This document shows, one piece after another, positions 1 to 64,000 of a DNA stretch of 64,000 bases. Under the pieces are notes generated by a model. It did not search any database and was not told the origin of the DNA. It saw only the letters and a list, made by a program, of their open reading frames with translations. How positions within the stretch are numbered: position 1 is the stretch's first letter; the number at the start of each line of letters is the position of its first letter. The position numbers and the translations under genes are program-made. The stretch is from Cylicocyclus nassatus (Eukaryota; Nematoda; Chromadorea; Rhabditida; Strongylidae), in assembly GCA_958299035.1 (NCBI GenBank), contig CATQJL010000001.1, forward strand, positions 28,933,521 through 28,997,520, in the 5' to 3' direction.

Positions 1-67
1 TTCGTTTTGCAGGCCAACCACGATATAGGGTGTGAATGCGAAACAGATAGCTTTGCGCCATGAACGT

Positions 68-75
68 CTACGTAG
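68..75 (+). promoter_or_regulatory. Palindrome CTACGTAG about 25 bp upstream of tRNA (candidate upstream element)
   Basis: CTACGTAG is its own reverse complement and sits at -28 to -21 relative to the tRNA 5' base, where pol III upstream elements bound by TFIIIB/TBP often lie. Alternative alleles at the same place are CTATGTAG (common after 36 kb), TTTGCGTAG, TTTACGTAG and CTACGCAG. A CAA or CAC triplet sits at -3 to -1. A regulatory role is inferred from position only. Confidence 0.35.
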
Positions 76-95
76 TTTGAAGGAACTGCTAACAA

Positions 96-167
96 GCGTT
101 CGTGGTGTAATGGTCAGCATGGATGCCTTCCAAGCATTCGACGGGGGTTCGATTCCCCCTGAACGCA
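96..167 (+). tRNA. tRNA-Gly(UCC), first copy in the window
   Basis: This is identical to the consensus copy except for C65 to T (CCCCCTGAACGCA), which turns the last acceptor pair G7-C65 into a G-U wobble. The fold and anticodon UCC are retained. The same change recurs sporadically, for example in the copies at 1265-1336, 1766-1837, 3436-3507, 20637-20708 and 21806-21877. Confidence 0.95.
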
Positions 168-262
168 TTCGTTTTGCAGGCCAACCACGATATAGGGTGT
201 GAATGCGAAACAGGTAGCTTTGCGCCGTGAACGTTTGCGTAGTTTGAAGGAACTGCTATCAC
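168..262 (+). other. 95-bp spacer between tRNA genes (representative)
   Basis: The spacer holds no separate gene that I can recognise. In order it has the TTTT terminator (spacer 5-8), a GATATAGG segment (22-29), GAATGCG (34-40), the variable CAG[A/G]TAGCTTTGCGCC region (43-59), the variable GTCTACGTAG/GTCTATGTAG/GTTTGCGTAG region (66-75) and a TATCAA, TATCAC, AACAA or ACCAA end directly before the tRNA. Variation is concentrated at spacer positions 11, 18, 47, 51-54, 60, 66-72 and 91-95. GATATAGG lies about 70 bp upstream of the next gene, so it is too far to be a classical TATA element. Confidence 0.8.
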
Positions 263-269
263 GCGTTCG

Positions 270-281
270 TGGTGTAATGGT
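270..281 (+). promoter_or_regulatory. pol III A box (internal promoter), consensus copy
   Basis: TGGTGTAATGGT at tRNA positions 8-19 fits the eukaryotic A-box pattern TRGYNNARNNGG with the D-loop GG. It is present in nearly all units. Copies with C at position 17 or T at position 18 have a damaged A box and are listed separately. Confidence 0.85.
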
Positions 282-323: not shown

Positions 324-338
324 CCCCGAACGCATTCG

Positions 339-501: not shown

Positions 502-3500
502 TTCGTTTTGCAGGCCAACCACGATATAGGGTGTGAATGCGAAACAGATAGCTTTGCGCCATGAACGTCTACGTAGTTTGAAGGAACTGCTAACAAGCGT
601 TCGTGGTGTAATGGTCAGCATGGATGCCTTCCAAGCATTCGACGGGGGTTCGATTCCCCCCGAACGCATTCGTTTTGCAGGCCAACCACGATATAGGGTG
701 TGAATGCGAAACAGATAGCTTTCCGCCATGAACGTCTACGTAGTTTGAAGGAACTGCTATCACGCGTTCGTGGTGTAATGGTCAGCATGGATGCCTTCCA
801 AGCATTCGACGGGGGTTCGATTCCCCCCGAACGCATTCGTTTTGCAAGCCAACCACGATATAGGGTGTGAATGCGAAACAGATACCTTTGCGCCATGAAC
901 GTCTACGTAGTTTGAAGGAACTGCTATCAAGCGTTCGTGGTGTAATGGTCAGCATGGATGCCTTCCAAGCATTCGACGGGGGTTCGATTCCCCCCGAACG
1001 CATTCGTTTTGCAGGCCAACCACGATATAGGGTGTGAATGCGAAACAGGTAGCTTTGCGCCGTGAACGTTTGCGTAGTTTGAAGGAACTGCTATCACGCG
1101 TTCGTGGTGTAATGGTCAGCATGGATGCCTTCCAAGCATTCGACGGGGGTTCGATTCCCCCCGAACGCATTCGTTTTGCAGGCCAACCACGATATAGGGT
1201 GTGAATGCGAAACAGATAGCTTTGCGCCATGAACGTCTACGTAGTTTGAAGGAACTGCTAACAAGCGTTCGTGGTGTAATGGTCAGCATGGATGCCTTCC
1301 AAGCATTCGACGGGGGTTCGATTCCCCCTGAACGCATTCGTTTTGCAGGCCAACCACGATATAGGGTGTGAATGCGAAACAGGTAGCTTTGCGCCATGAA
1401 CGTCTACGTAGTTTGAAGGAACTGCTATCACGCGTTCGTGGTGTAATGGTCAGCATGGATGCCTTCCAAGCATTCGACGGGGGTTCGATTCCCCCCGAAC
1501 GCATTCGTTTTGCAGGCCAACCACGATATAGGGTGTGAATGCGAAACAGGTAGCTTTGCGCCGTGAACGTTTGCGTAGTTTGAAGGAACTGCTATCACGC
1601 GTTCGTGGTGTAATGGTCAGCATGGATGCCTTCCAAGCATTCGACGGGGGTTCGATTCCCCCCGAACGCATTCGTTTTGCAGGCCAACCACGATATAGGG
1701 TGTGAATGCGAAACAGATAGCTTTGCGCCATGAACGTCTACGTAGTTTGAAGGAACTGCTAACAAGCGTTCGTGGTGTAATGGTCAGCATGGATGCCTTC
1801 CAAGCATTCGACGGGGGTTCGATTCCCCCTGAACGCATTCGTTTTGCAGGCCAACCACGATATAGGGTGTGAATGCGAAACAGGTAGCTTTGCGCCGTGA
1901 ACGTTTGCGTAGTTTGAAGGAACTGCTATCACGCGTTCGTGGTGTAATGGTCAGCATGGATGCCTTCCAAGCATTCGACGGGGGTTCGATTCCCCCCGAA
2001 CGCATTCGTTTTGCAGGCCAACCACGATATAGGGTGTGAATGCGAAACAGGTAGCTTTGCGCCATGAACGTCTACGTAGTTTGAAGGAACTGCTACCAAG
2101 CGTTCGTGGTGTAATGGTCAGCATGGATGCCTTCCAAGCATTCGACGGGGGTTCGATTTCCCCCGAACGCATTCGTTTTGCAGGCCAACCACGATATAGG
2201 GTGTGAATGCGAAACAGGTAGCTTTGCGCCATGAACGTCTACGTAGTTTGAAGGAACTGCTATCAAGCGTTCGTGGTGTAATGGTCAGCATGGATGCCTT
2301 CCAAGCATTCGACGGGGGTTCGATTCCCCCCGAACGCATTCGTTTTGCAGGCCAACCACGATATAGGGTGTGAATGCGAAACAGATAGCTTTGCGCCATG
2401 AACGTTTGCGTAGTTTGAAGGAACTGCTATCACGCGTTCGTGGTGTAATGGTCAGCATGGATGCCTTCCAAGCATTCGACGGGGGTTCGATTCCCCCCGA
2501 ACGCATTCGTTTTGCAGGCCAACCACGATATAGGGTGTGAATGCGAAACAGGTAGCTTTGCGCCGTGAACGTTTGCGTAGTTTGAAGGAACTGCTATCAC
2601 GCGTTCGTGGTGTAATGGTCAGCATGGATGCCTTCCAAGCATTCGACGGGGGTTCGATTCCCCCCGAACGCATTCGTTTTGCAGGCCAACCACGATATAG
2701 GGTGTGAATGCGAAACAGATAGCTTTGCGCCATGAACGTCTACGTAGTTTGAAGGAACTGCTAACAAGCGTTCGTGGTGTAATGGTCAGCATGGATGCCT
2801 TCCAAGCATTCGACGGGGGTTCGATTCCCCCCGAACGCATTCGTTTTGCAGGCCAACCACGATATAGGGTGTGAATGCGAAACAGATAGCTTTCCGCCAT
2901 GAACGTCTACGTAGTTTGAAGGAACTGCTATCACGCGTTCGTGGTGTAATGGTCAGCATGGATGCCTTCCAAGCATTCGACGGGGGTTCGATTCCCCCCG
3001 AACGCATTCGTTTTGCAAGCCAACCACGATATAGGGTGTGAATGCGAAACAGATACCTTTGCGCCATGAACGTCTACGTAGTTTGAAGGAACTGCTATCA
3101 AGCGTTCGTGGTGTAATGGTCAGCATGGATGCCTTCCAAGCATTCGACGGGGGTTCGATTCCCCCCGAACGCATTCGTTTTGCAGGCCAACCACGATATA
3201 GGGTGTGAATGCGAAACAGGTAGCTTTGCGCCGTGAACGTTTGCGTAGTTTGAAGGAACTGCTATCACGCGTTCGTGGTGTAATGGTCAGCATGGATGCC
3301 TTCCAAGCATTCGACGGGGGTTCGATTCCCCCCGAACGCATTCGTTTTGCAGGCCAACCACGATATAGGGTGTGAATGCGAAACAGATAGCTTTGCGCCA
3401 TGAACGTCTACGTAGTTTGAAGGAACTGCTAACAAGCGTTCGTGGTGTAATGGTCAGCATGGATGCCTTCCAAGCATTCGACGGGGGTTCGATTCCCCCT

Positions 3501-5606: not shown

Positions 5607-5678
5607 GCGTTCGTGGTGTAATGGTCAGCATGGATGCCTTCAAAGCATTCGACGGGGGTTCGATTCCCCCCGAACGCA
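5607..5678 (+). tRNA. tRNA with glycine body and anticodon UCA (UGA-reading), copy 1 of 9
   Basis: The only difference from the consensus gene is C36 to A, making the anticodon loop CTTCAAA and the anticodon UCA (5640-5642), complementary to the stop codon UGA. All stems, the A and B boxes and the terminator are intact. Glycyl-tRNA synthetase normally reads C35 and C36, so charging is uncertain. It could be a UGA suppressor, an uncharged or mischarged tRNA, or a silent variant. Confidence 0.9.
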
Positions 5679-9018: not shown

Positions 9019-9113
9019 TTCGTTTTGCAGGCCAACCACGATATAGGGTGTGAATGCGAAACAGATAGCTTTGCGCCATGAACGTTTGCGTAGTTTGAAG
9101 GAACTGCTATCAC

Positions 9114-9185
9114 GCGTTCGTGGTGTAATCGTCAGCATGGATGCCTTCCAAGCATTCGACGGGGGTTCGATTCCCCCCGAACGCA
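9114..9185 (+). tRNA. tRNA-Gly(UCC) variant C17 in the D loop (possibly defective)
   Basis: AATCGTCAGC replaces AATGGTCAGC at 9127-9136. The base corresponds to invariant G18, which intercalates into the T loop. The stems are intact. It has an identical partner 4175 bp downstream at 13289. Confidence 0.7.
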
Positions 9186-11117
9186 TTCGTTTTGCAGGCC
9201 AACCACGATATAGGGTGTGAATGCGAAACAGATAGCTTTGCGCCATGAACGTCTACGTAGTTTGAAGGAACTGCTAACAAGCGTTCGTGGTGTAATGGTC
9301 AGCATGGATGCCTTCCAAGCATTCGACGGGGGTTCGATTCCCCCCGAACGCATTCGTTTTGCAGGCCATCCACGATATAGGGTGTGAATGCGAAACAGAT
9401 AGCTTTCCGCCATGAACGTCTACGTAGTTTGAAGGAACTGCTATCACGCGTTCGTGGTGTAATGGTCAGCATGGATGCCTTCCAAGCATTCGACGGGGGT
9501 TCGATTCCCCCCGAACGCATTCGTTTTGCAGGCCAACCACGATATAGGGTGTGAATGCGAAACAGAAAGCTTTGCGCCATGAACGTCTACGTAGTTTGAA
9601 GGAACTGCTATCACGCGTTCGTGGTGTAATGGTCAGCATGGATGCCTTCCAAGCATTCGACTGGGGTTCGATTCCCCCCGAACGCATTCGTTTTGCAGGC
9701 CAACCACGATATAGGGTGTGAATGCGAAACAGGTAGCTTTGCGCCATGAACGTTTGCGTAGTTTGAAGGAACTGCTATCACGCGTTCGTGGTGTAATGGT
9801 CAGCATGGATGCCTTCCAAGCATTCGACGGGGGTTCGATTTCCCCCGAACGCATTCGTTTTGCAGGCCAACCACGATATAGGGTGTGAATGCGAAACAGA
9901 TAGCTTTGCGCCATGAACGTCTACGTAGTTTGAAGGAACTGCTAACAAGCGTTCGTGGTGTAATGGTCAGCATGGATGCCTTCCAAGCATTCGACGGGGG
10001 TTCGATTCCCCCCGAACGCATTCGTTTTGCAGGCCATCCACGATATAGGGTGTGAATGCGAAACAGATAGCTTTCCGCCATGAACGTCTACGTAGTTTGA
10101 AGGAACTGCTATCACGCGTTCGTGGTGTAATGGTCAGCATGGATGCCTTCCAAGCATTCGACGGGGGTTCGATTCCCCCCGAACGCATTCGTTTTGCAGG
10201 CCAACCACGATATAGGGTGTGAATGCGAAACAGATAGCTTTGCGCCATGAACGTCTACGTAGTTTGAAGGAACTGCTATCACGCGTTCGTGGTGTAATGG
10301 TCAGCATGGATGCCTTCCAAGCATTCGACTGGGGTTCGATTCCCCCCGAACGCATTCGTTTTGCAAGCCAACCACGATATAGGGTGTGAATGCGAAACAG
10401 ATACCTTTGCGCCATGAACGTCTACGTAGTTTGAAGGAACTGCTATCAAGCGTTCGTGGTGTAATGGTCAGCATGGATGCCTTCCAAGCATTCGACGGGG
10501 GTGCGATTCCCCCCGAACGCATTCGTTTTGCAGGCCAACCACGATATAGGGTGTGAATGCGAAACAGATAGCTTTGCGCCATGAACGTTTGCGTAGTTTG
10601 AAGGAACTGCTATCACGCGTTCGTGGTGTAATGGTCAGCATGGATGCCTTCCAAGCATTCGACGGGGGTTCGATTCCCCCCGAACGCATTCGTTTTGCAG
10701 GCCAACCACGATATAGGGTGTGAATGCGAAACAGGTAGCTTTGCGCCATGAACGTCTACGTAGTTTGTAGGAACTGCTATCAAGCGTTCGTGGTGTAATG
10801 GTCAGCATGGATGCCTTCCAAGCATTCGACGGGGGTTCGATTTCCCCCGAACGCATTCGTTTTGCAGGCCAACCACGATATAGGGTGTGAATGCGAAACA
10901 GATAGCTTTGCGCCATGAACGTTTACGTAGTTTGAAGGAACTGCTATCAAGCGTTCGTGGTGTAATGGTCAGCATGGATGCCTTCCAAGCATTCGACGGG
11001 GGTTCGATTCCCCCCGAACGCATTCGTTTTGCAGGCCAACCACGATATAGGGTGTGAATGCGAAACAGATAGCTTTGCGCCATGAACGTTTGCGTAGTTT
11101 GAAGGAACTGCTATCAC

Positions 11118-11189
11118 GCGTTCGTGGTGTAATCGTCAGCATGGATGCCTTCCAAGCATTCGACGGGGGTTCGATTCCCCCCGAACGCA
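11118..11189 (+). tRNA. tRNA-Gly(UCC) variant C17 in the D loop (possibly defective)
   Basis: It carries the same G to C change as the copy at 9114, at 11134. Its partner is the copy at 15293. Confidence 0.7.
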
Positions 11190-12119
11190 TTCGTTTTGCA
11201 GGCCAACCACGATATAGGGTGTGAATGCGAAACAGATAGCTTTGCGCCATGAACGTTTGCGTAGTTTGAAGGAACTGCTATCACGCGTTCGTGGTGTAAT
11301 GGTCAGCATGGATGCCTTCCAAGCATTCGAGGGGGGTTCGATTCCCCCCGAACGCATTCGTTTTGCAGGCCAACCACGATATAGGGTGTGAATGCGAAAC
11401 AGGTAGCTTTGCGCCATGAACGTTTGCGTAGTTTGAAGGAACTGCTATCACGCGTTCGTGGTGTAATGGTCAGCATGGATGCCTTCCAAGCATTCGACGG
11501 GGGTTCGATTCCCCCCGAACGCATTCGTTTTGCAGGCCAACCACGATATAGGGTGTGAATGCGAAACAGATAGCTTTGCGCCATGAACGTCTACGTAGTT
11601 TGAAGGAACTGCTAACAAGCGTTCGTGGTGTAATGGTCAGCATGGATGCCTTCCAAGCATTCGACGGGGGTTCGATTCCCCCCGAACGCATTCGTTTTGC
11701 AGGCCATCCACGATATAGGGTGTGAATGCGAAACAGATAGCTTTCCGCCATGAACGTCTACGTAGTTTGAAGGAACTGCTATCACGCGTTCGTGGTGTAA
11801 TGGTCAGCATGGATGCCTTCCAAGCATTCGACGGGGGTTCGATTCCCCCCGAACGCATTCGTTTTGCAGGCCAACCACGATATAGGGTGTGAATGCGAAA
11901 CAGATAGCTTTGCGCCATGAACGTCTACGTAGTTTGAAGGAACTGCTATCACGCGTTCGTGGTGTAATGGTCAGCATGGATGCCTTCCAAGCATTCGACT
12001 GGGGTTCGATTCCCCCCGAACGCATTCGTTTTGCAGGCCAACCACGATATAGGGTGTGAATGCGAAACAGGTAGCTTTGCGCCATGAACGTTTGCGTAGT
12101 TTGAAGGAACTGCTATCAC

Positions 12120-12191
12120 GCGGTCGTGGTGTAATGGTCAGCATGGATGCCTTCCAAGCATTCGACGGGGGTTCGATTCCCCCCGAACGCA
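12120..12191 (+). tRNA. tRNA-Gly(UCC) variant G4 in the acceptor stem
   Basis: GCGGTCG replaces GCGTTCG, giving a G-A mismatch in the acceptor stem opposite A68. The promoter boxes are intact. The identical variant recurs at 16295, 4175 bp downstream. Confidence 0.75.
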
Positions 12192-12453
12192 TTCGTTTTG
12201 CAGGCCAACCACGATATAGGGTGTGAATGCGAAACAGATAGCTTTCCGCCATGAACGTCTACGTAGTTTGAAGGAACTGCTATCACGCGTTCGTGGTGTA
12301 ATGGTCAGCATGGATGCCTTCCAAGCATTCGACGGGGGTTCGATTCCCCCCGAACGCATTCGTTTTGCAGGCCAACCACGATATAGGGTGTGAATGCGAA
12401 ACAGATAGCTTTGCGCCATGAACGTCTACGTAGTTTGAAGGAACTGCTATCAC

Positions 12454-12525
12454 GCGTTCGTGGTGTAATGGTCAGCATGGATGCCTTCCAAGCATTCGAC
12501 TGGGGTTCGATTCCCCCCGTACGCA
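12454..12525 (+). tRNA. tRNA-Gly(UCC) with T48 and T67 (two stem mismatches)
   Basis: It combines the T48 T-stem mismatch with A67 to T (CCCCGTACGCA), which gives a U-U mismatch in the acceptor stem. Function is doubtful. Confidence 0.65.
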
Positions 12526-13288
12526 TTCGTTTTGCAAGCCAACCACGATATAGGGTGTGAATGCGAAACAGATACCTTTGCGCCATGAACGTCTACGTAG
12601 TTTGAAGGAACTGCTATCAAGCGTTCGTGGTGTAATGGTCAGCATGGATGCCTTCCAAGCATTCGACGGGGGTTCGATTCCCCCCGAACGCATTCGTTTT
12701 GCAGGCCAACCACGATATAGGGTGTGAATGCGAAACAGATAGCTTTGCGCCATGAACGTTTGCGTAGTTTGAAGGAACTGCTATCACGCGTTCGTGGTGT
12801 AATGGTCAGCATGGATGCCTTCCAAGCATTCGACGGGGGTTCGATTCCCCCCGAACGCATTCGTTTTGCAGGCCAACCACGATATAGGGTGTGAATGCGA
12901 AACAGGTAGCTTTGCGCCATGAACGTCTACGTAGTTTGTAGGAACTGCTATCAAGCGTTCGTGGTGTAATGGTCAGCATGGATGCCTTCCAAGCATTCGA
13001 CGGGGGTTCGATTTCCCCCGAACGCATTCGTTTTGCAGGCCAACCACGATATAGGGTGTGAATGCGAAACAGATAGCTTTGCGCCATGAACGTCTACGTA
13101 GTTTGAAGGAACTGCTATCAAGCGTTCGTGGTGTAATGGTCAGCATGGATGCCTTCCAAGCATTCGACGGGGGTTCGATTCCCCCCGAACGCATTCGTTT
13201 TGCAGGCCAACCACGATATAGGGTGTGAATGCGAAACAGATAGCTTTGCGCCATGAACGTTTGCGTAGTTTGAAGGAACTGCTATCAC

Positions 13289-13360
13289 GCGTTCGTGGTG
13301 TAATCGTCAGCATGGATGCCTTCCAAGCATTCGACGGGGGTTCGATTCCCCCCGAACGCA
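13289..13360 (+). tRNA. tRNA-Gly(UCC) variant C17 in the D loop (possibly defective)
   Basis: G to C at 13305. It is the duplicate of the copy at 9114. Confidence 0.7.
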
Positions 13361-14959
13361 TTCGTTTTGCAGGCCAACCACGATATAGGGTGTGAATGCG
13401 AAACAGATAGCTTTGCGCCATGAACGTCTACGTAGTTTGAAGGAACTGCTAACAAGCGTTCGTGGTGTAATGGTCAGCATGGATGCCTTCCAAGCATTCG
13501 ACGGGGGTTCGATTCCCCCCGAACGCATTCGTTTTGCAGGCCATCCACGATATAGGGTGTGAATGCGAAACAGATAGCTTTCCGCCATGAACGTCTACGT
13601 AGTTTGAAGGAACTGCTATCACGCGTTCGTGGTGTAATGGTCAGCATGGATGCCTTCCAAGCATTCGACGGGGGTTCGATTCCCCCCGAACGCATTCGTT
13701 TTGCAGGCCAACCACGATATAGGGTGTGAATGCGAAACAGAAAGCTTTGCGCCATGAACGTCTACGTAGTTTGAAGGAACTGCTATCACGCGTTCGTGGT
13801 GTAATGGTCAGCATGGATGCCTTCCAAGCATTCGACTGGGGTTCGATTCCCCCCGAACGCATTCGTTTTGCAGGCCAACCACGATATAGGGTGTGAATGC
13901 GAAACAGGTAGCTTTGCGCCATGAACGTTTGCGTAGTTTGAAGGAACTGCTATCACGCGTTCGTGGTGTAATGGTCAGCATGGATGCCTTCCAAGCATTC
14001 GACGGGGGTTCGATTTCCCCCGAACGCATTCGTTTTGCAGGCCAACCACGATATAGGGTGTGAATGCGAAACAGATAGCTTTGCGCCATGAACGTCTACG
14101 TAGTTTGAAGGAACTGCTAACAAGCGTTCGTGGTGTAATGGTCAGCATGGATGCCTTCCAAGCATTCGACGGGGGTTCGATTCCCCCCGAACGCATTCGT
14201 TTTGCAGGCCATCCACGATATAGGGTGTGAATGCGAAACAGATAGCTTTCCGCCATGAACGTCTACGTAGTTTGAAGGAACTGCTATCACGCGTTCGTGG
14301 TGTAATGGTCAGCATGGATGCCTTCCAAGCATTCGACGGGGGTTCGATTCCCCCCGAACGCATTCGTTTTGCAGGCCAACCACGATATAGGGTGTGAATG
14401 CGAAACAGATAGCTTTGCGCCATGAACGTCTACGTAGTTTGAAGGAACTGCTATCACGCGTTCGTGGTGTAATGGTCAGCATGGATGCCTTCCAAGCATT
14501 CGACTGGGGTTCGATTCCCCCCGAACGCATTCGTTTTGCAAGCCAACCACGATATAGGGTGTGAATGCGAAACAGATACCTTTGCGCCATGAACGTCTAC
14601 GTAGTTTGAAGGAACTGCTATCAAGCGTTCGTGGTGTAATGGTCAGCATGGATGCCTTCCAAGCATTCGACGGGGGTTCGATTCCCCCCGAACGCATTCG
14701 TTTTGCAGGCCAACCACGATATAGGGTGTGAATGCGAAACAGATAGCTTTGCGCCATGAACGTTTGCGTAGTTTGAAGGAACTGCTATCACGCGTTCGTG
14801 GTGTAATGGTCAGCATGGATGCCTTCCAAGCATTCGACGGGGGTTCGATTCCCCCCGAACGCATTCGTTTTGCAGGCCAACCACGATATAGGGTGTGAAT
14901 GCGAAAACAGGTAGCTTTGCGCCATGAACGTCTACGTAGTTTGTAGGAACTGCTATCAA

Positions 14960-15030
14960 GCGTTCGTGGTGTAATGGTCAGCATGGATGCCTTCCAAGAG
15001 TACTCTGCGTTGATACCACTGCTTTACGCA
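14960..15030 (+). pseudogene. tRNA-Gly(UCC) copy interrupted by adapter-like sequence
   Basis: The first 39 bases match the gene through the anticodon (TCC) and stop at G39. The next 26 bases are unrelated to the array, and TACGCA then resumes the 3' end and spacer. The whole T arm, B box and 3' anticodon strand are missing. The matching unit 4175 bp upstream (10784-10855) is intact, so this is probably an assembly or library artefact rather than a real pseudogene. The preceding spacer also has one extra A near 14901-14907. Confidence 0.85.
14999..15024 (-). other. Library adapter/primer remnant (SMART-type amplification oligo)
   Basis: On the + strand the 26 bases run from AGTACTCTGC to ACCACTGCTT. 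Read on the minus strand they start AAGCAGTGGTATCAACGCAG and end AGTACT. This is the SMART PCR primer as I recall it, and with the final T also the adapter I recall from PacBio ultra-low-input gDNA amplification. Nothing else in the window resembles it. Recognition is from memory, without a database check. Confidence 0.9.
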
Positions 15031-15292
15031 TTCGTTTTGCAGGCCAACCACGATATAGGGTGTGAATGCGAAACAGATAGCTTTGCGCCATGAACGTTTA
15101 CGTAGTTTGAAGGAACTGCTATCAAGCGTTCGTGGTGTAATGGTCAGCATGGATGCCTTCCAAGCATTCGACGGGGGTTCGATTCCCCCCGAACGCATTC
15201 GTTTTGCAGGCCAACCACGATATAGGGTGTGAATGCGAAACAGATAGCTTTGCGCCATGAACGTTTGCGTAGTTTGAAGGAACTGCTATCAC

Positions 15293-15364
15293 GCGTTCGT
15301 GGTGTAATCGTCAGCATGGATGCCTTCCAAGCATTCGACGGGGGTTCGATTCCCCCCGAACGCA
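15293..15364 (+). tRNA. tRNA-Gly(UCC) variant C17 in the D loop (possibly defective)
   Basis: G to C at 15309. It is the duplicate of the copy at 11118. Confidence 0.7.
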
Positions 15365-16294
15365 TTCGTTTTGCAGGCCAACCACGATATAGGGTGTGAA
15401 TGCGAAACAGATAGCTTTGCGCCATGAACGTTTGCGTAGTTTGAAGGAACTGCTATCACGCGTTCGTGGTGTAATGGTCAGCATGGATGCCTTCCAAGCA
15501 TTCGAGGGGGGTTCGATTCCCCCCGAACGCATTCGTTTTGCAGGCCAACCACGATATAGGGTGTGAATGCGAAACAGGTAGCTTTGCGCCATGAACGTTT
15601 GCGTAGTTTGAAGGAACTGCTATCACGCGTTCGTGGTGTAATGGTCAGCATGGATGCCTTCCAAGCATTCGACGGGGGTTCGATTCCCCCCGAACGCATT
15701 CGTTTTGCAGGCCAACCACGATATAGGGTGTGAATGCGAAACAGATAGCTTTGCGCCATGAACGTCTACGTAGTTTGAAGGAACTGCTAACAAGCGTTCG
15801 TGGTGTAATGGTCAGCATGGATGCCTTCCAAGCATTCGACGGGGGTTCGATTCCCCCCGAACGCATTCGTTTTGCAGGCCATCCACGATATAGGGTGTGA
15901 ATGCGAAACAGATAGCTTTCCGCCATGAACGTCTACGTAGTTTGAAGGAACTGCTATCACGCGTTCGTGGTGTAATGGTCAGCATGGATGCCTTCCAAGC
16001 ATTCGACGGGGGTTCGATTCCCCCCGAACGCATTCGTTTTGCAGGCCAACCACGATATAGGGTGTGAATGCGAAACAGATAGCTTTGCGCCATGAACGTC
16101 TACGTAGTTTGAAGGAACTGCTATCACGCGTTCGTGGTGTAATGGTCAGCATGGATGCCTTCCAAGCATTCGACTGGGGTTCGATTCCCCCCGAACGCAT
16201 TCGTTTTGCAGGCCAACCACGATATAGGGTGTGAATGCGAAACAGGTAGCTTTGCGCCATGAACGTTTGCGTAGTTTGAAGGAACTGCTATCAC

Positions 16295-16366
16295 GCGGTC
16301 GTGGTGTAATGGTCAGCATGGATGCCTTCCAAGCATTCGACGGGGGTTCGATTCCCCCCGAACGCA
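16295..16366 (+). tRNA. tRNA-Gly(UCC) variant G4 in the acceptor stem
   Basis: It is the duplicate of the 12120 copy, with the same G-A acceptor mismatch. Confidence 0.75.
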
Positions 16367-17964
16367 TTCGTTTTGCAGGCCAACCACGATATAGGGTGTG
16401 AATGCGAAACAGATAGCTTTCCGCCATGAACGTCTACGTAGTTTGAAGGAACTGCTATCACGCGTTCGTGGTGTAATGGTCAGCATGGATGCCTTCCAAG
16501 CATTCGACGGGGGTTCGATTCCCCCCGAACGCATTCGTTTTGCAGGCCAACCACGATATAGGGTGTGGATGCGAAACAGATAGCTTTGCGCCATGAACGT
16601 CTACGTAGTTTGAAGGAACTGCTATCACGCGTTCGTGGTGTAATGGTCAGCATGGATGCCTTCCAAGCATTCGACTGGGGTTCGATTCCCCCCGAACGCA
16701 TTCGTTTTGCAGGCCAACCACGATATAGGGTGTGAATGCGAAACAGGTAGCTTTGCGCCATGAACGTTTGCGTAGTTTGAAGGAACTGCTATCACGCGTT
16801 CGTGGTGTAATGGTCAGCATGGATGCCTTCCAAGCATTCGACGGGGGTTCGATTCCCCCCGAACGCATTCGTTTTGCAGGCCAACCACGATATAGGGTGT
16901 GAATGCGAAACAGATAGCTTTGCGCCATGAACGTCTACGTAGTTTGAAGGAACTGCTAACAAGCGTTCGTGGTGTAATGGTCAGCATGGATGCCTTCCAA
17001 GCATTCGACGGGGGTTCGATTCCCCCCGAACGCATTCGTTTTGCAGGCCAACCACGATATAGGGTGTGGATGCGAAACAGATAGCTTTGCGCCATGAACG
17101 TCTACGTAGTTTGAAGGAACTGCTATCACGCGTTCGTGGTGTAATGGTCAGCATGGATGCCTTCCAAGCATTCGACTGGGGTTCGATTCCCCCCGAACGC
17201 ATTCGTTTTGCAGGCCAACCACGATATAGGGTGTGAATGCGAAACAGGTAGCTTTGCGCCATGAACGTTTGCGTAGTTTGAAGGAACTGCTATCACGCGT
17301 TCGTGGTGTAATGGTCAGCATGGATGCCTTCCAAGCATTCGACGGGGGTTCGATTCCCCCCGAACGCATTCGTTTTGCAGGCCAACCACGATATAGGGTG
17401 TGAATGCGAAACAGATAGCTTTGCGCCATGAACGTCTACGTAGTTTGAAGGAACTGCTAACAAGCGTTCGTGGTGTAATGGTCAGCATGGATGCCTTCCA
17501 AGCATTCGACGGGGGTTCGATTCCCCCCGAACGCATTCGTTTTGCAGGCCATCCACGATATAGGGTGTGAATGCGAAACAGATAGCTTTCCGCCATGAAC
17601 GTCTACGTAGTTTGAAGGAACTGCTATCACGCGTTCGTGGTGTAATGGTCAGCATGGATGCCTTCCAAGCATTCGACGGGGGTTCGATTCCCCCCGAACG
17701 CATTCGTTTTGCAGGCCAACCACGATATAGGGTGTGAATGCGAAACAGATAGCTTTGCGCCATGAACGTCTACGTAGTTTGAAGGAACTGCTATCACGCG
17801 TTCGTGGTGTAATGGTCAGCATGGATGCCTTCCAAGCATTCGACTGGGGTTCGATTCCCCCCGAACGCATTCGTTTTGCAAGCCAACCACGATATAGGGT
17901 GTGAATGCGAAACAGATACCTTTGCGCCATGAACGTCTACGTAGTTTGAAGGAACTGCTATCAA

Positions 17965-23610: not shown

Positions 23611-24139
23611 CTACGTAGTTTGAAGGAACTGCTATCAAGCGTTCGTGGTGTAATGGTCAGCATGGATGCCTTCCAAGCATTCGACGGGGGTTCGATTCCC
23701 CCCGAACGCATTCGTTTTGCAGGCCAACCACGATATAGGGTGTGAATGCGAAACAGATAGCTTTGCGCCATGAACGTTTGCGTAGTTTGAAGGAACTGCT
23801 ATCAAGCGTTCGTGGTGTAATGGTCAGCATGGATGCCTTCCAAGCATTCGACGGGGGTTCGATTTCCCCCGAACGCATTCGTTTTGCAGGCCAACCACGA
23901 TATAGGGTGTGAATGCGAAACAGATAGCTTTGCGCCATGAACGTTTACGTAGTTTGAAGGAACTGCTATCAAGCGTTCGTGGTGTAATGGTCAGCATGGA
24001 TGCCTTCCAAGCATTCGACGGGGGTTCGATTTCCCCCGAACGCATTCGTTTTGCAGGCCAACCACGATATAGGGTGTGAATGCGAAACAGGTAGCTTTGC
24101 GCCATGAACGTCTACGTAGTTTGAAGGAACTGCTATCAA

Positions 24140-24211
24140 GCGTTCGTGGTGTAATGGTCAGCATGGATGCCTTCCAAGTATTCGACGGGGGTTCGATTTC
24201 TCCCGAGCGCA
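24140..24211 (+). tRNA. tRNA-Gly(UCC) variant with four transitions, all tolerated as G-U pairs
   Basis: This copy has T40, T60, T62 and G68. Each converts a Watson-Crick pair into a G-U wobble (G30-U40, G52-U60, G50-U62, U4-G68), so the cloverleaf still closes. The B box carries T60. A 12-unit duplicate lies at 26144. Confidence 0.75.
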
Positions 24212-24807
24212 TTCGTTTTGCAGGCCAACCACGATATAGGGTGTGAATGCGAAACAGATAGCTTTGCGCCATGAACGTCTACGTAGTTTGAAGGAACTGC
24301 TAACAAGCGTTCGTGGTGTAATGGTCAGCATGGATGCCTTCCAAGCATTCGACGGGGGTTCGATTCCCCCCGAACGCATTCGTTTTGCAGGCCAACCACG
24401 ATATAGGGTGTGAATGCGAAACAGATAGCTTTGCGCCATGAACGTCTACGTAGTTTGAAGGAACTGCTATCACGCGTTCGTGGTGTAATGGTCAGCATGG
24501 ATGCCTTCCAAGCATTCGACGGGGGTTCGATTCCCCCCGAACGCATTCGTTTTGCAGGCCAACCACGATATAGGGTGTGAATGCGAAACAGATAGCTTTG
24601 CGCCATGAACGTCTACGTAGTTTGAAGGAACTGCTATCAAGCGTTCGTGGTGTAATGGTCAGCATGGATGCCTTCCAAGCATTCGACTGGGGTTCGATTC
24701 CCCCCGAACGCATTCGTTTTGCAAGCCAACCACGATATAGGGTGTGAATGCGAAACAGATACCTTTGCGCCATGAACGTCTACGTAGTTTGAAGGAACTG
24801 CTATCAA

Positions 24808-24879
24808 GCGTTCGTGGTGTAATGGTCAGCATGGATGCCTTCAAAGCATTCGACGGGGGTTCGATTCCCCCCGAACGCA
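24808..24879 (+). tRNA. tRNA with glycine body and anticodon UCA, copy 2 of 9
   Basis: Anticodon TCA is at 24841-24843 and the rest matches the consensus. It follows the T48 tRNA and GCAAGCC/GATACC spacer unit, as do most UCA copies. Confidence 0.9.
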
Positions 24880-25809
24880 TTCGTTTTGCAGGCCAACCAC
24901 GATATAGGGTGTGAATGCGAAACAGGTAGCTTTGCGCCATGAACGTCTACGTAGTTTGAAGGAACTGCTATCAAGCGTTCGTGGTGTAATGGTCAGCATG
25001 GATGCCTTCCAAGCATTCGACGGGGGTTCGATTTCCCCCGAACGCATTCGTTTTGCAGGCCAACCACGATATAGGGTGTGAATGCGAAACAGATAGCTTT
25101 GCGCCATGAACGTCTACGTAGTTTGAAGGAACTGCTAACAAGCGTTCGTGGTGTAATGGTCAGCATGGATGCCTTCCAAGCATTCGACGGGGGTTCGATT
25201 CCCCCCGAACGCATTCGTTTTGCAGGCCAACCACGATATAGGGTGTGAATGCGAAACAGATAGCTTTGCGCCATGAACGTCTACGTAGTTTGAAGGAACT
25301 GCTATCACGCGTTCGTGGTGTAATGGTCAGCATGGATGCCTTCCAAGCATTCGACGGGGGTTCGATTCCCCCCGAACGCATTCGTTTTGCAGGCCAACCA
25401 CGATATAGGGTGTGAATGCGAAACAGATAGCTTTGCGCCATGAACGTCTACGTAGTTTGAAGGAACTGCTATCACGCGTTCGTGGTGTAATGGTCAGCAT
25501 GGATGCCTTCCAAGCATTCGACGGGGGTTCGATTCCCCCCGAACGCATTCGTTTTGCAGGCCAACCACGATATAGGGTGTGAATGCGAAACAGATAGCTT
25601 TGCGCCATGAACGTCTACGTATTTTGAAGGAACTGCTATCACGCGTTCGTGGTGTAATGGTCAGCATGGATGCCTTCCAAGCATTCGACTGGGGTTCGAT
25701 TCCCCCCGAACGCATTCGTTTTGCAAGCCAACCACGATATAGGGTGTGAATGCGAAACAGATACCTTTGCGCCATGAACGTCTACGTAGTTTGAAGGAAC
25801 TGCTATCAA

Positions 25810-25881
25810 GCGTTCGTGGTGTAATGGTCAGCATGGATGCCTTCAAAGCATTCGACGGGGGTTCGATTCCCCCCGAACGCA
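25810..25881 (+). tRNA. tRNA with glycine body and anticodon UCA, copy 3 of 9
   Basis: Anticodon TCA is at 25843-25845. It lies six units after the previous UCA copy and the body is intact. Confidence 0.9.
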
Positions 25882-26143
25882 TTCGTTTTGCAGGCCAACC
25901 ACGATATAGGGTGTGAATGCGAAACAGGTAGCTTTGCGCCATGAACGTCTACGTAGTTTGAAGGAACTGCTATCAAGCGTTCGTGGTGTAATGGTCAGCA
26001 TGGATGCCTTCCAAGCATTCGACGGGGGTTCGATTTCCCCCGAACGCATTCGTTTTGCAGGCCAACCACGATATAGGGTGTGAATGCGAAACAGGTAGCT
26101 TTGCGCCATGAACGTCTACGTAGTTTGAAGGAACTGCTATCAA

Positions 26144-26215
26144 GCGTTCGTGGTGTAATGGTCAGCATGGATGCCTTCCAAGTATTCGACGGGGGTTCGA
26201 TTTCTCCCGAGCGCA
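26144..26215 (+). tRNA. tRNA-Gly(UCC) variant with four G-U-compatible transitions, second copy
   Basis: It is identical in its four changes to the copy at 24140, 2004 bp upstream, and so arrived by block duplication. Confidence 0.75.
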
Positions 26216-26811
26216 TTCGTTTTGCAGGCCAACCACGATATAGGGTGTGAATGCGAAACAGATAGCTTTGCGCCATGAACGTCTACGTAGTTTGAAGGAA
26301 CTGCTAACAAGCGTTCGTGGTGTAATGGTCAGCATGGATGCCTTCCAAGCATTCGACGGGGGTTCGATTCCCCCCGAACGCATTCGTTTTGCAGGCCAAC
26401 CACGATATAGGGTGTGAATGCGAAACAGATAGCTTTGCGCCATGAACGTCTACGTAGTTTGAAGGAACTGCTATCACGCGTTCGTGGTGTAATGGTCAGC
26501 ATGGATGCCTTCCAAGCATTCGACGGGGGTTCGATTCCCCCCGAACGCATTCGTTTTGCAGGCCAACCACGATATAGGGTGTGAATGCGAAACAGATAGC
26601 TTTGCGCCATGAACGTCTACGTAGTTTGAAGGAACTGCTATCAAGCGTTCGTGGTGTAATGGTCAGCATGGATGCCTTCCAAGCATTCGACTGGGGTTCG
26701 ATTCCCCCCGAACGCATTCGTTTTGCAAGCCAACCACGATATAGGGTGTGAATGCGAAACAGATACCTTTGCGCCATGAACGTCTACGTAGTTTGAAGGA
26801 ACTGCTATCAA

Positions 26812-26883
26812 GCGTTCGTGGTGTAATGGTCAGCATGGATGCCTTCAAAGCATTCGACGGGGGTTCGATTCCCCCCGAACGCA
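26812..26883 (+). tRNA. tRNA with glycine body and anticodon UCA, copy 4 of 9
   Basis: Anticodon TCA is at 26845-26847. It is the 12-unit duplicate of the copy at 24808. Confidence 0.9.
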
Positions 26884-27813
26884 TTCGTTTTGCAGGCCAA
26901 CCACGATATAGGGTGTGAATGCGAAACAGGTAGCTTTGCGCCATGAACGTCTACGTAGTTTGAAGGAACTGCTATCAAGCGTTCGTGGTGTAATGGTCAG
27001 CATGGATGCCTTCCAAGCATTCGACGGGGGTTCGATTTCCCCCGAACGCATTCGTTTTGCAGGCCAACCACGATATAGGGTGTGAATGCGAAACAGATAG
27101 CTTTGCGCCATGAACGTCTACGTAGTTTGAAGGAACTGCTAACAAGCGTTCGTGGTGTAATGGTCAGCATGGATGCCTTCCAAGCATTCGACGGGGGTTC
27201 GATTCCCCCCGAACGCATTCGTTTTGCAGGCCAACCACGATATAGGGTGTGAATGCGAAACAGATAGCTTTGCGCCATGAACGTCTACGTAGTTTGAAGG
27301 AACTGCTATCACGCGTTCGTGGTGTAATGGTCAGCATGGATGCCTTCCAAGCATTCGACGGGGGTTCGATTCCCCCCGAACGCATTCGTTTTGCAGGCCA
27401 ACCACGATATAGGGTGTGAATGCGAAACAGATAGCTTTGCGCCATGAACGTCTACGTAGTTTGAAGGAACTGCTATCACGCGTTCGTGGTGTAATGGTCA
27501 GCATGGATGCCTTCCAAGCATTCGACGGGGGTTCGATTCCCCCCGAACGCATTCGTTTTGCAGGCCAACCACGATATAGGGTGTGAATGCGAAACAGATA
27601 GCTTTGCGCCATGAACGTCTACGTATTTTGAAGGAACTGCTATCACGCGTTCGTGGTGTAATGGTCAGCATGGATGCCTTCCAAGCATTCGACTGGGGTT
27701 CGATTCCCCCCGAACGCATTCGTTTTGCAAGCCAACCACGATATAGGGTGTGAATGCGAAACAGATACCTTTGCGCCATGAACGTCTACGTAGTTTGAAG
27801 GAACTGCTATCAA

Positions 27814-27885
27814 GCGTTCGTGGTGTAATGGTCAGCATGGATGCCTTCAAAGCATTCGACGGGGGTTCGATTCCCCCCGAACGCA
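27814..27885 (+). tRNA. tRNA with glycine body and anticodon UCA, copy 5 of 9
   Basis: Anticodon TCA is at 27847-27849. It is the 12-unit duplicate of the copy at 25810. Confidence 0.9.
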
Positions 27886-44430: not shown

Positions 44431-44502
44431 TATAGGGTGTGAATGCGAAACAGGTAGCTTTGCGCCATGAACGTCTATGTAGTTTGAAGGAACTGCTATC
44501 AA

Positions 44503-48735: not shown

Positions 48736-49234
48736 TTCGTTTTGCAGGCCAACCACGATATAGGGTGTGAATGCGAAACAGATAGCTTTGCGCCATGAAC
48801 GTCTATGTAGTTTGAAGGAACTGCTATCAAGCGTTCGTGGTGTAATGGTCAGCATGGATGCCTTCCAAGCATTCGACGGGGGTTCGATTCCCCCCGAACG
48901 CATTCGTTTTGCACAACCACGATATAGGGTGTGAATGCGAAACAGGTAGCTTTGCGCCATGAACGTCTATGTAGTTTGAAGGAACTGCTATCAAGCGTTC
49001 GTGGTGTAATGGTCAGCATGGATGCCTTCCAAGCATTCGACGGGGGTTCGATTCCCCCCGAACGCATTCGTTTTGCAGGCCAACCACGATATAGGGTGTG
49101 AATGCGAAACAGGTAGCTTTGCGCCATGAACGTCTACGTAGTTTGAAGGAACTGCTATCAAGCGTTCGTGGTGTAATGGTCAGCATGGATGCCTTCCAAG
49201 CATTCGACGGGGGTTCGATTCCCCCCGAACGCAT

Positions 49235-49255
49235 TCGTTTTGCGGCCAACTACGA
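49235..49255 (+). other. Spacer with 1-bp deletion (GCGGCCAACTACG allele)
   Basis: GCGGCCAACTACG replaces GCAGGCCAACCACG. The same allele occurs near 51577 and 62758, each time followed by a GTTTACGTAG...TATCAC end, so a whole unit haplotype has been moved. Confidence 0.8.
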
Positions 49256-58839: not shown

Positions 58840-58912
58840 GCGTTCGTGGTGTAATGGTCAGCATGGATGCCTTCCAAGCATTCGACGGGGGTTCGATTCC
58901 CCCCCGAACGCA
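58840..58912 (+). tRNA. tRNA-Gly(UCC), 73-bp variant with one extra C
   Basis: GATTCCCCCCCGAAC has seven Cs instead of six. This is the only insertion I found inside an otherwise normal tRNA copy. Confidence 0.7.
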
Positions 58913-60509: not shown

Positions 60510-60581
60510 GCGTTCGTGGTGTAATGTTCAGCATGGATGCCTTCCAAGCATTCGACGGGGGTTCGATTCCCCCCGAACGCA
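60510..60581 (+). tRNA. tRNA-Gly(UCC) variant T18 in the D loop (possibly defective)
   Basis: AATGTTCAGC, with T at 60527. It is the same change as at 8947, more than 50 kb away, and so probably independent. A four-unit duplicate lies at 61178. Confidence 0.7.
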
Positions 60582-61177
60582 TTCGTTTTGCAGGCCAACC
60601 ACGATATAGGGTGTGAATGCGAAACAGGTAGCTTTGCGCCATGAACGTCTACGTAGTTTGAAGGAACTGCTATCAAGCGTTCGTGGTGTAATGGTCAGCA
60701 TGGATGCCTTCCAAGCATTCGACGGGGGTTCGATTCCCCCCGAACGCATTCGTTTTGCAGGCCAACCACGATATAGGGTGTGAATGCGAAACAGGTAGCT
60801 TTGCGCCATGAACGTCTACGTAGTTGGAAGGAACTGCTATCAAGCGTTCGTGGTGTAATGGTCAGCATGGATGCCTTCCAAGCATTCGACGGGGGTTCGA
60901 TTCCCCCCGAACGCATTCGTTTTGCAGGCCAACCACGATATAGGGTGTGAATGCGAAACAGGTAGCTTTGCGCCATGAACGTCTACGTAGTTTGAAGGAA
61001 CTGCTATCAAGCGTTCGTGGTGTAATGGTCAGCATGGATGCCTTCCAAGCATTCGACGGGGGTTCGATTCCCCCCGAACGCATTCGTTTTGCAGGCCAAC
61101 CACGATATAGGGTGTGAATGCGAAACAGATAGCTTTGCGCCATGAACGTCTATGTAGTTTGAAGGAACTGCTATCAA

Positions 61178-61249
61178 GCGTTCGTGGTGTAATGTTCAGC
61201 ATGGATGCCTTCCAAGCATTCGACGGGGGTTCGATTCCCCCCGAACGCA
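61178..61249 (+). tRNA. tRNA-Gly(UCC) variant T18 in the D loop (possibly defective)
   Basis: It is the duplicate of the 60510 copy, with T at 61195. Confidence 0.7.
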
Positions 61250-63845
61250 TTCGTTTTGCAGGCCAACCACGATATAGGGTGTGAATGCGAAACAGGTAGC
61301 TTTGCGCCATGAACGTCTACGTAGTTTGAAGGAACTGCTATCAAGCGTTCGTGGTGTAATGGTCAGCATGGATGCCTTCCAAGCATTCGACGGGGGTTCG
61401 ATTCCCCCCGAACGCATTCGTTTTGCAGGCCAACCACGATATAGGGTGTGAATGCGAAACAGGTAGCTTTGCGCCATGAACGTCTACGTAGTTTGAAGGA
61501 ACTGCTATCAAGCGTTCGTGGTGTAATGGTCAGCATGGATGCCTTCCAAGCATTCGACGGGGGTTCGATTTCCCCCGAACGCATTCGTTTTGCAGGCCAA
61601 CCACGATATAGGGTGTGAATGCGAAACAGATAGCTTTGCGCCATGAACGTCTACGTAGTTTGAAGGAACTGCTAACAAGCGTTCGTGGTGTAATGGTCAG
61701 CATGGATGCCTTCCAAGCATTCGACGGGGGTTCGATTCCCCCCGAACGCATTCGTTTTGCAGGCCAACCACGATATAGGGTGTGAATGCGAAACAGATAG
61801 CTTTGCGCCATGAACGTCTACGTAGTTTGAAGGAACTGCTAACAAGCGTTCGTGGTGTAATGGTCAGCATGGATGCCTTCCAAGCATTCGACGGGGGTTC
61901 GATTCCCCCCGAACGCATTCGTTTTGCAGGCCAACCACGATATAGGGTGTGAATGCGAAACAGATAGCTTTGCGCCATGAACGTCTATGTAGTTTGAAGG
62001 AACTGCTATCAAGCGTTCGTGGTGTAATGGTCAGCATGGATGCCTTCCAAGCATTCGACGAGGGTTCGATTCCCCCCGAACGCATTCGTTTTGCACAACC
62101 ACGATATAGGGTGTGAATGCGAAACAGGTAGCTTTGCGCCATGAACGTCTACGTAGTTTGAAGGAACTGCTATCAAGCGTTCGTGGTGTAATGGTCAGCA
62201 TGGATGCCTTCCAAGCATTCGACGGGGGTTCGATTCCCCCCGAACGCATTCGTTTTGCAGGCCAACCACGATATAGGGTGTGAATGCGAAACAGGTAGCT
62301 TTGCGCCATGAACGTCTACGTAGTATGAAGGAACTGCTATCAAGCGTTCGTGGTGTAATGGTCAGCATGGATGCCTTCCAAGCATTCGACGGGGGTTCGA
62401 TTCCCGCCGAACGCATTCGTTTTGCAGGCCAACCACGATATAGGGTGTGAATGCGAAACAGATAGCTTTGCGCCATGAACGTCTACGTAGTTTGAAGGAA
62501 CTGCTAACAAGCGTTCGTGGTGTAATGGTCAGCATGGATGCCTTCCAAGCATTCGACGGGGGTTCGATTCCCCCCGAACGCATTCGTTTTGCAGGCCAAC
62601 CACGATATAGGGTGTGAATGCGAAACAGATAGCTTTGCGCCATGAACGTCTATGTAGTTTGAAGGAACTGCTATCAAGCGTTCGTGGTGTAATGGTCAGC
62701 ATGGATGCCTTCCAAGCATTCGACGGGGGTTCGATTCCCCCCGAACGCATTCGTTTTGCGGCCAACTACGATATAGGGTGTGAATGCGAAACAGATAGCT
62801 TTGCGCCATGAACGTTTACGTAGTTTGAAGGAACTGCTATCACGCGTTCGTGGTGTAATGGTCAGCATGGATGCCTTCCAAGCATTCGACGGGGGTTCGA
62901 TTCCCCCCGAACGCATTCGTTTTGCAGGCCAACCACGATATAGGGTGTGAATGCGAAACAGGTAGCTTTGCGCCATGAACGTCTACGTAGTTTGAAGGAA
63001 CTGCTATCAAGCGTTCGTGGTGTAATGGTCAGCATGGATGCCTTCCAAGCATTCGACGGGGGTTCGATTCCCCCCGAACGCATTCGTTTTGCAGGCCAAC
63101 CACGATATAGGGTGTGAATGCGAAACAGGTAGCTTTGCGCCATGAACGTCTACGTAGCTTGAAGGAACTGCTATCAAGCGTTCGTGGTGTAATGGTCAGC
63201 ATGGATGCCTTCCAAGCATTCGACGGGGGTTCGATTCCCCCCGAACGCATTCGTTTTGCAGGCCAACCACGATATAGGGTGTGAATGCGAAACAGATAGC
63301 TTTGCGCCATGAACGTCTACGTAGTTTGAAGGAACTGCTAACAAGCGTTCGTGGTGTAATGGTCAGCATGGATGCCTTCCAAGCATTCGACGGGGGTTCG
63401 ATTCCCCCCGAACGCATTCGTTTTGCAGGCCAACCACGATATAGGGTGTGAATGCGAAACAGATAGCTTTGCGCCATGAACGTCTACGTAGTTTGAAGGA
63501 ACTGCTAACAAGCGTTCGTGGTGTAATGGTCAGCATGGATGCCTTCCAAGCATTCGACGGGGGTTCGATTCCCCCCGAACGCATTCGTTTTGCAGGCCAA
63601 CCACGATATAGGGTGTGAATGCGAAACAGATAGCTTTGCGCCATGAACGTCTATGTAGTTTGAAGGAACTGCTATCAAGCGTTCGTGGTGTAATGGTCAG
63701 CATGGATGCCTTCCAAGCATTCGACGGGGGTTCGATTCCCCCCGAACGCATTCGTTTTGCAGGCCAACCACGATATAGGGTGTGAATGCGAAACAGGTAG
63801 CTTTGCGCCATGAATGTCTATGTAGTTTGAAGGAACTGCTATCAA

Positions 63846-63917
63846 GCGTTCGTGGTGTAATGGTCAGCATGGATGCCTTCCAAGCATTCGACGGGGGTTC
63901 GATTCCCCCCGAACGCA
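63846..63917 (+). tRNA. tRNA-Gly(UCC), last complete copy
   Basis: It has the consensus sequence with anticodon UCC at 63879-63881. It is followed by 83 bp of spacer (CTATGTAG allele) to the window end, so the array continues beyond. Confidence 0.95.
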
Positions 63918-64000
63918 TTCGTTTTGCAGGCCAACCACGATATAGGGTGTGAATGCGAAACAGATAGCTTTGCGCCATGAACGTCTATGTAGTTTGAAGG

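What the first reader, a model, noticed from the sequence alone, without database searches (positions are those of the whole stretch)
1..64000. A tRNA-Gly(UCC) gene amplified into a satellite-like array of at least 383 copies
Seen directly: a uniform, head-to-tail array of 167-bp units, each with a near-perfect tRNA gene, internal pol III promoter and terminator, filling 64 kb with no edge. Known tandem tRNA arrays (for example Entamoeba, and a multi-tRNA repeat in Xenopus) differ in unit content. A single-isoacceptor array this long and short-period is unusual. It could be a tRNA supply locus for GGA-rich secreted proteins, a tRNA-derived satellite, a pol III-rich insulator or centromeric element, or a source of small RNAs.
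Basis: partly seen in the sequence, partly recalled or inferred. Interest (0 to 1): 0.88.

Follow-up and report, generated by a model that had tools for sequence, protein, structure and literature searches.

The report
Long tandem array of glycine tRNA genes
The whole stretch is one glycine-tRNA gene copied head to tail several hundred times, a real but not unprecedented kind of tRNA 'satellite'; one copy is overwritten by a leftover laboratory adapter sequence, so the exact length and order should be checked against the raw reads.

Summary
All 64 kb is one same-strand array of a 167-bp unit: 383 full units plus an 83-bp partial, 97% matching, no edge. ARAGORN calls a tRNA in 382 of 383 full units: 370 Gly(UCC), 9 with anticodon UCA, 3 with UCU. 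319 of 383 are structurally intact UCC copies; 256 of 383 also keep canonical A and B boxes.

The uncalled unit is not a pseudogene. Positions 14999-15024 exactly match a 26-base library oligo whose first 25 bases are printed as a SMART-type oligo in PMC9546769. So the assembly has an adapter remnant, and probably a read-end join, inside the array. Block order is kept across it, and no exact repeat exceeds 2,149 bp, so a looped-assembly origin of the whole array is unlikely.

Best reading: a tRNA-gene satellite that turns over by unequal exchange and segmental duplication, with at most weak selection on the tRNA part. Precedents: Entamoeba's single-gene Gly(UCC) array, maize's 92-kb 'tRNA satellite', Hydractinia tRNA arrays. 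Supply, centromere and small-RNA roles could not be tested; no genome is held and the organism is unknown.

The parts
1..64000 (+). Tandem array of the 167-bp unit (72-bp tRNA-Gly(UCC) gene plus 95-bp spacer), 383 full units and an 83-bp partial unit; no edge in the window
502..668 (+). A representative full unit: spacer 502-596, tRNA-Gly(UCC) gene 597-668
669..677 (+). TTCGTTTTG just downstream of the representative gene, with the T4 pol III-type terminator; the same 9 bases open 383 of 383 full units
554..611 (+). Predicted hairpin in a read-through RNA: spacer 554-568 pairs with tRNA nucleotides 1-15 (597-611)
   Evidence: RNA fold; spacer-only shuffles. Prediction only; local sequence alignment did not support it
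14864..15030 (+). Unit index 89, the only full unit without a tRNA call; left part keeps the 47G and 80T variants of a common haplotype, right part is overwritten by the adapter, and it has one extra A
14999..15024 (-). Exact 26-base library-adapter sequence; sequencing-library artefact, probable read end and assembly join
   Evidence: one exact match, none expected in 100 shuffles; first 25 bases printed as an oligo in PMC9546769
24808..34398 (+). Stretch holding 8 of the 9 copies with anticodon UCA (C to A at tRNA position 36); the ninth is at 5607-5678. Spread by block duplication
23946..28098 (+). Longest exact internal repeat: 2,149 bp at 23946 and at 25950, offset 12 units
9019..16533 (+). 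20-unit block (9019-12358) repeated 25 units further on (13194-16533); apart from one substitution, the extra A and the adapter stretch the two copies follow the same haplotype order

Best explanation
A satellite whose repeat unit is a complete tRNA-Gly(UCC) gene. Shown: one gene per 167-bp unit with A box, B box and T4; blocks of up to 12 consecutive units recur exactly elsewhere in the array; most copies look transcribable. Inferred: a single tRNA-Gly gene with its 95-bp spacer was amplified and is kept homogeneous by unequal exchange and segmental duplication. The tRNA part feels at most weak purifying selection, because copies are hugely redundant and many are probably silent. RNA polymerase III can use intact copies, so the array may add to the tRNA pool, but its size reflects satellite turnover more than demand.
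For: 20 runs of at least 5 identical consecutive units recur at another place, longest 12 units, covering 176 of 383 units; the longest run in 50 shuffles of unit order was 4. 105 haplotypes among 383 units. 319 of 383 copies intact. Mutations land in the tRNA as often as in the spacer (27 of 72 against 37 of 95 positions, p 0.87, unit 89 left out), but diversity is lower in the tRNA (0.0107 against 0.0286, permutation p 0.045) and pair-keeping variants are in more copies than pair-breaking ones (p 0.016). Variants expected to harm the gene have been copied: UCA anticodon in 9 units, C60T in box B in 57, G48T in 22, so selection is weak. Precedents in print: maize tRNA satellite, Entamoeba, Hydractinia.
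Against: The selection signals are marginal: copies per variant, spacer against tRNA, p 0.013 with unit 89 but 0.072 without it and 0.15 without singletons. The T4-containing opening of the unit is invariant in 383 of 383, which may mean stronger constraint on expression. No expression, chromatin or flank data exist here, and PCR chimaeras from an amplified library could have made some haplotypes.
Confidence: 0.6

Rival explanations
1. A selected tRNA supply locus: high copy number is kept because some tissue needs much tRNA-Gly(UCC) for GGA-rich proteins such as cuticle or silk.
For: 319 of 383 copies intact and 256 with canonical boxes; lower diversity in the tRNA than in the spacer (p 0.045); terminator opening invariant in 383 of 383. 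Analogy: deletion of the Arabidopsis Ser/Tyr tRNA cluster alters accumulation of a Ser/Tyr/Pro-rich glycoprotein (PMC12308677, abstract and passages).
Against: Spread of UCA (9 copies), box-B C60T (57) and stem-breaking G48T (22, unit 89 left out) argues against strong selection per copy. Codon usage and expression are not available.
Confidence: 0.2
2. A structural element (centromere, boundary or heterochromatin repeat) that happens to use a tRNA gene; the period of 167 bp is close to chromatosome length.
For: Period 167 and local block duplication resemble centromeric satellites (resemblance recalled). A human tRNA tandem repeat was implicated as a boundary element (PMC4041453, passages).
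Against: Nothing here tests chromatin. No CENP-B-box or nucleosome-periodicity test was run. CpG is not depleted (13 sites, observed/expected 1.21) and CpG transitions are not enriched (6 of 26 against 17 of 59 bases, p 0.79), so no footprint of germline CpG methylation.
Confidence: 0.1
3. Largely an assembly or amplification artefact: a short array blown up by PCR concatemers, chimaeras or looped assembly.
For: An intact 26-base library adapter lies inside the array; adapter-bearing HiFi reads are known to cause insertions and mis-joins in assemblies (PMC8864876, passages). The 1,542-bp exact repeat of 10851 begins at 15026, two bases after the adapter.
Against: Only one adapter in 64 kb. No exact repeat at offsets of 150 bp or more exceeds 2,149 bp, and 105 haplotypes occur in a non-random order; a loop or concatemer of a short template would repeat exactly. 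Haplotype order is kept across the adapter in register with the copy 25 units away.
Confidence: 0.08

Closest known systems
Entamoeba single-gene tRNA array [Gly-TCC] (PMC2652664, passages and the tables section)
   Same: Tandem units with one tRNA gene, the same isoacceptor, homogenised by concerted evolution as its authors propose
   Different: Entamoeba intergenic regions are 63.2-85.3% A+T over the five species tabulated, here the spacer is 54.7%; Entamoeba histolytica intergenic regions carry short tandem repeats, and TRF reported none here besides the 167-bp array. There nearly all tRNA genes are in arrays; here that is unknown
Maize tRNA satellite, tRNASAT_ZM, 91.95 kb on chr4L (PMC10335936, passages)
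   Same: A tRNA-based satellite array of similar or greater length
   Different: Isoacceptor, unit length and intactness of its tRNA are not given in the passages seen, so unit-level comparison was not possible
Hydractinia tRNA tandem arrays (PMC11067881, passages)
   Same: Evenly spaced arrays of tens to hundreds of near-identical ncRNA genes, tRNAs included
Arabidopsis tRNA-Pro and Ser-Tyr-Tyr clusters, maize tRNA-Ile cluster, moss clusters (PMC12308677, PMC11700998, PMC12652284; passages)
   Same: Tandem amplification of one or a few tRNA genes; the Arabidopsis cluster is silent in most tissues
   Different: 27 to 28 repeats in Arabidopsis and maize, clusters of 2 to 110 genes in the 50-plant survey; here at least 383 single-gene units
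Human 1q23.3 tRNA tandem repeat (PMC4041453, passages)
   Same: Variable-number tandem repeat carrying tRNA genes
   Different: 7.3-kb units with several tRNA genes, 9-43 units

Membership tests
Eukaryotic tRNA-Gly(UCC) gene | Cloverleaf with UCC anticodon, box A and box B, T-run terminator, no encoded CCA | tested here: met
   RF00005 68.2 bits for the common copy; 319 of 383 intact UCC, 256 also with canonical boxes; T4 context in 383 of 383; gene ends GCA followed by TTCG
Eukaryotic tRNA-Gly(UCC) gene | Transcribed and charged with glycine | not testable with these tools
   No expression or biochemical data
Tandem tRNA gene array / tRNA satellite | Head-to-tail near-identical units, each with a tRNA gene | tested here: met
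Tandem tRNA gene array / tRNA satellite | Local block duplication expected of satellite turnover | tested here: met
   20 recurring runs of at least 5 units, longest 12; longest in 50 shuffles 4
Entamoeba-type tRNA array | A+T-rich intergenic region with short tandem repeats | tested here: not met
   Spacer 54.7% A+T against 63.2-85.3%; TRF lists no short-period array
tRNA-derived SINE | tRNA-like head, unrelated body and A-rich or simple-repeat tail, dispersed copies | tested here: inconclusive
   Unit is strictly tandem with a full tRNA gene and no A-rich tail in the 95-bp spacer; dispersal untestable without a genome
Centromeric satellite | CENP-A or kinetochore association | not testable with these tools
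   No chromatin data
Selenocysteine tRNA (ARAGORN label of 9 copies) | Long acceptor/variable-arm architecture of tRNA-Sec (recalled) | tested here: not met
   The 9 copies are 72-nt members of the same Gly array with C to A at position 36

The most novel reading that the evidence does not exclude
The spacer carries a built-in partial antisense of its own gene. In a read-through RNA, spacer bases 53-67 of the unit pair with tRNA nucleotides 1-15, locking the downstream tRNA in a hairpin. Transcripts that fail to stop at T4 would then give double-stranded RNA instead of tRNA, which could feed small RNAs that silence the array and let it expand as tolerated heterochromatin. Support: spacer-only shuffles fold as well in 1 of 300 cases on the + strand and the minus strand shows nothing (p 0.575, 200 shuffles). 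Against: ordinary local alignment of the reversed spacer to the tRNA is no better than chance (p 0.37), the duplex alone has p 0.013, and no RNA data exist.
Probability: 0.07. Interest if true: 0.7.

Novelty: new member of a known kind. Interest (0 to 1): 0.42.

Why it matters
If the copy number holds in reads, this is a long single-isoacceptor tRNA array with a very short period, a clean system for asking when redundant tRNA genes are supply and when they are satellite: the same locus gives hundreds of positions where mutations in box A, box B, stems and anticodon can be followed as they spread. The adapter remnant is a practical warning that tandem arrays in assemblies from adapter-amplified libraries need a read-level check before copy numbers are quoted.

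Tried and rejected
Origin by search: the tRNA or spacer was not found in IMG/VR (exact patterns; degenerate tRNA pattern), in GTDB genomes (exact 28-base spacer pattern) or in plasmids. In phages only Halorubrum tailed virus 10 matched (two records, 34% of the query, 79.4%), at a tRNA-Gly; this is a general tRNA resemblance. Exact strings of the tRNA were in none of the library's papers. No eukaryote collection is held; the eukaryotic origin is inferred from the gene features and from the absence of a held genome.

Unit 89 as a decaying pseudogene: rejected, the change is an exact library oligo. First statistics included it and counted false variants from the misaligned adapter; repeats the main ones without it, and the weaker values are the ones reported.

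Transcription-linked mutation asymmetry: A>G against T>C variants 15 to 4 (p 0.010), 14 to 4 without unit 89 (p 0.017). It is one of six strand comparisons made, so after correction it is not significant, and it is not used.

Invariant run of 13 spacer bases (unit 20-32): p 0.017 with unit 89, 0.047 without; noted, not used.

Literature: a search for tRNA-Gly with tandem array and satellite found no paper; two searches found none; searches gave nothing on point beyond the cat flea paper (over 4000 tRNA genes, Gly reduced; passages). No claim is made that such an array is absent from print: the library lacks most subscription journals.

Two papers were opened for the oligo and did not hold it: PMC6062574 and PMC7059395. 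PMC8138834 describes ultra-low-input PacBio libraries with a T-overhang adapter and PCR and discarding of reads with complete PCR adapters, but does not print the oligo (passages); PMC10682056 does not print it either. That this oligo is the one in that kit is recalled.
Full report
What is there. The window is a single array. TRF reports one row, 1-64000, period 167, 383.5 copies, 97% matches. Segmentation yields 383 full units and an 83-bp partial one; 357 of the 384 segments are exactly 167 bp. Each unit is a 95-bp spacer followed by a 72-bp tRNA gene. ARAGORN genes, all on the + strand: 370 Gly(TCC), 9 TCA and 3 TCT. In the first 1000 bases, the part given to Rfam, complete copies score 62.4 to 68.2 bits for RF00005 (gathering 29), and one copy cut by the end scores 59.2.

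How intact the genes are. Of 383 tRNAs, 241 equal the majority sequence; 319 keep all stem pairs, have no indel and read TCC; 256 of those also have canonical A and B boxes. Most of the loss between 319 and 256 comes from the last-but-one base of box B: C60T, found in 57 units and giving a G-U pair in the T stem. The 9 bases TTCGTTTTG that open the unit, and so follow the preceding gene with a T4, are the same in 383 of 383. No CCA is encoded.

The adapter. The one full unit without a tRNA call is unit index 89 (14864-15030). Its last part reads as an exact 26-base match, on the minus strand at 14999-15024, to AAGCAGTGGTATCAACGCAGAGTACT; with up to 3 mismatches this is the only match in the window, and 100 shuffles gave none. 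No other 11-base piece of it occurs elsewhere in the window. The first 25 bases are printed as the FLASH-seq template-switching oligo, a SMART-type sequence, in PMC9546769 (passages). That the same oligo, with a T overhang, is the PCR adapter of PacBio ultra-low-input libraries is recalled; the workflow with a T-overhang adapter and PCR, and the discarding of reads with complete PCR adapters, is described in PMC8138834 (passages). Adapter-bearing HiFi reads can be built into assemblies and cause insertions and mis-joins (PMC8864876, passages). The simplest account is that a read ending in an adapter was assembled into the array here. The unit also has one extra A in a homopolymer.

Does the adapter undermine the array? 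Partly. Haplotype order is kept across it: units 87-98 follow the order of units 62-73, 25 units earlier, and unit 89 still shows the 47G and 80T variants of the haplotype (47G 80T 155T) expected in that slot. The block 9019-12358 and its partner 13194-16533 differ by one substitution before the extra A and the adapter, and match exactly again for 1,542 bp from 15026. This fits a correct in-register join, but it also fits a false duplication of the earlier block, and sequence alone cannot decide. Across the window as a whole, the longest exact repeat (all offsets from 150 bp) is 2,149 bp and there are 105 haplotypes in 383 units, which a looped assembly or a concatemer of a short template would not give. 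PCR chimaeras could still have made some haplotypes.

How it evolves. Twenty runs of at least 5 consecutive identical units recur elsewhere in the array; the longest is 12 units, 176 of 383 units lie in such runs, and 50 shuffles of unit order never exceeded a run of 4. Three runs share an offset of 25 units. This is the mark of unequal exchange and segmental duplication. Of the 9 UCA copies, 8 lie at 24808-34398 and 7 of the 9 share one haplotype, so a copy that would read UGA, if charged, was multiplied without being removed. Loss of glycine identity by a change at C36 is recalled, not tested.

Selection. With unit 89 left out (382 units), variable positions are as common in the tRNA (27 of 72) as in the spacer (37 of 95; p 0.87), but diversity is lower in the tRNA (0.0107 against 0.0286; permutation p 0.045), and among tRNA variants those that keep a pair are in more copies than those that break one (p 0.016). 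Copies per variant, spacer against tRNA, gave p 0.013 with unit 89, 0.072 without it and 0.15 without singletons. Taken together: weak purifying selection at most. CpG sites are not depleted (13, observed/expected 1.21) and CpG transitions are not enriched (6 of 26 against 17 of 59; p 0.79), so there is no footprint of germline CpG methylation (unit 89 included).

A possible hairpin. Folded as RNA, one unit gives -63.8 kcal/mol against a shuffle mean of -47.5 (z -3.78, 0 of 200 as low), because spacer bases 53-67 pair with tRNA nucleotides 1-15. Shuffling the spacer alone reaches this energy in 1 of 300 cases; the duplex alone in about 4 of 300 (p 0.013); the minus strand shows nothing (p 0.575). 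The duplex energy is the same, -33.3, in 307 of 383 units. Against it: local alignment of the reversed spacer with the tRNA is at chance level (p 0.37). The 5' arm lies 29-43 bases upstream of the gene and would normally be outside its own transcript, so the hairpin matters only in read-through RNA. It is kept as the bold reading, at low odds.

Comparison. Maize Mo17 has a 91.95-kb 'tRNA satellite' (PMC10335936, passages). Hydractinia has evenly spaced tRNA arrays with tens to hundreds of copies and longer spacers (PMC11067881, passages). Plant clusters are smaller: 27-28 repeats in Arabidopsis and maize, and clusters of up to 110 genes in a 50-species survey (PMC11700998, PMC12652284, passages). 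The Arabidopsis Ser/Tyr cluster is silent in most tissues yet used in root cap cells (PMC12308677, passages), a caution against calling such arrays either inert or essential.

Verdict. A real tandem array, a new member of a known kind, long and short-period, with an adapter artefact inside it. Most likely a satellite built from a working tRNA gene. Function beyond that is open.

Noticed in passing
14999-15024: Exact library-adapter sequence embedded in the assembly, with an extra A at about 14904 in the same unit; a submission-screening miss and a probable read-end join.
   Followed up: yes
5607-5678, and eight places in 24808-34398: Nine tRNA copies with anticodon UCA; ARAGORN labels them SeC but they are Gly-array members with C36A, potential UGA readers if charged.
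   Followed up: partly
35997, 36832, 39002: Three copies with anticodon UCU (labelled Arg), again array members with a change at position 36.
   Followed up: no
38407-48240 for the G-run loss and 44078-51568 for the C-run loss (unit starts): One-base losses in the T-stem G run (9 units) and C run (6 units), never both in one unit; they recur with the block structure, so they look inherited, but homopolymer error is not excluded.
   Followed up: partly
unit positions 20-32 (for example 521-533): ACGATATAGGGTG, the longest stretch without any variant in the units aligned; p 0.047 for such a run with unit 89 left out.
   Followed up: partly
37 places, for example 58691-59140: All 37 ORFs of at least 100 aa lie on the minus strand; they are mechanical and no evidence of a gene.
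   Followed up: no
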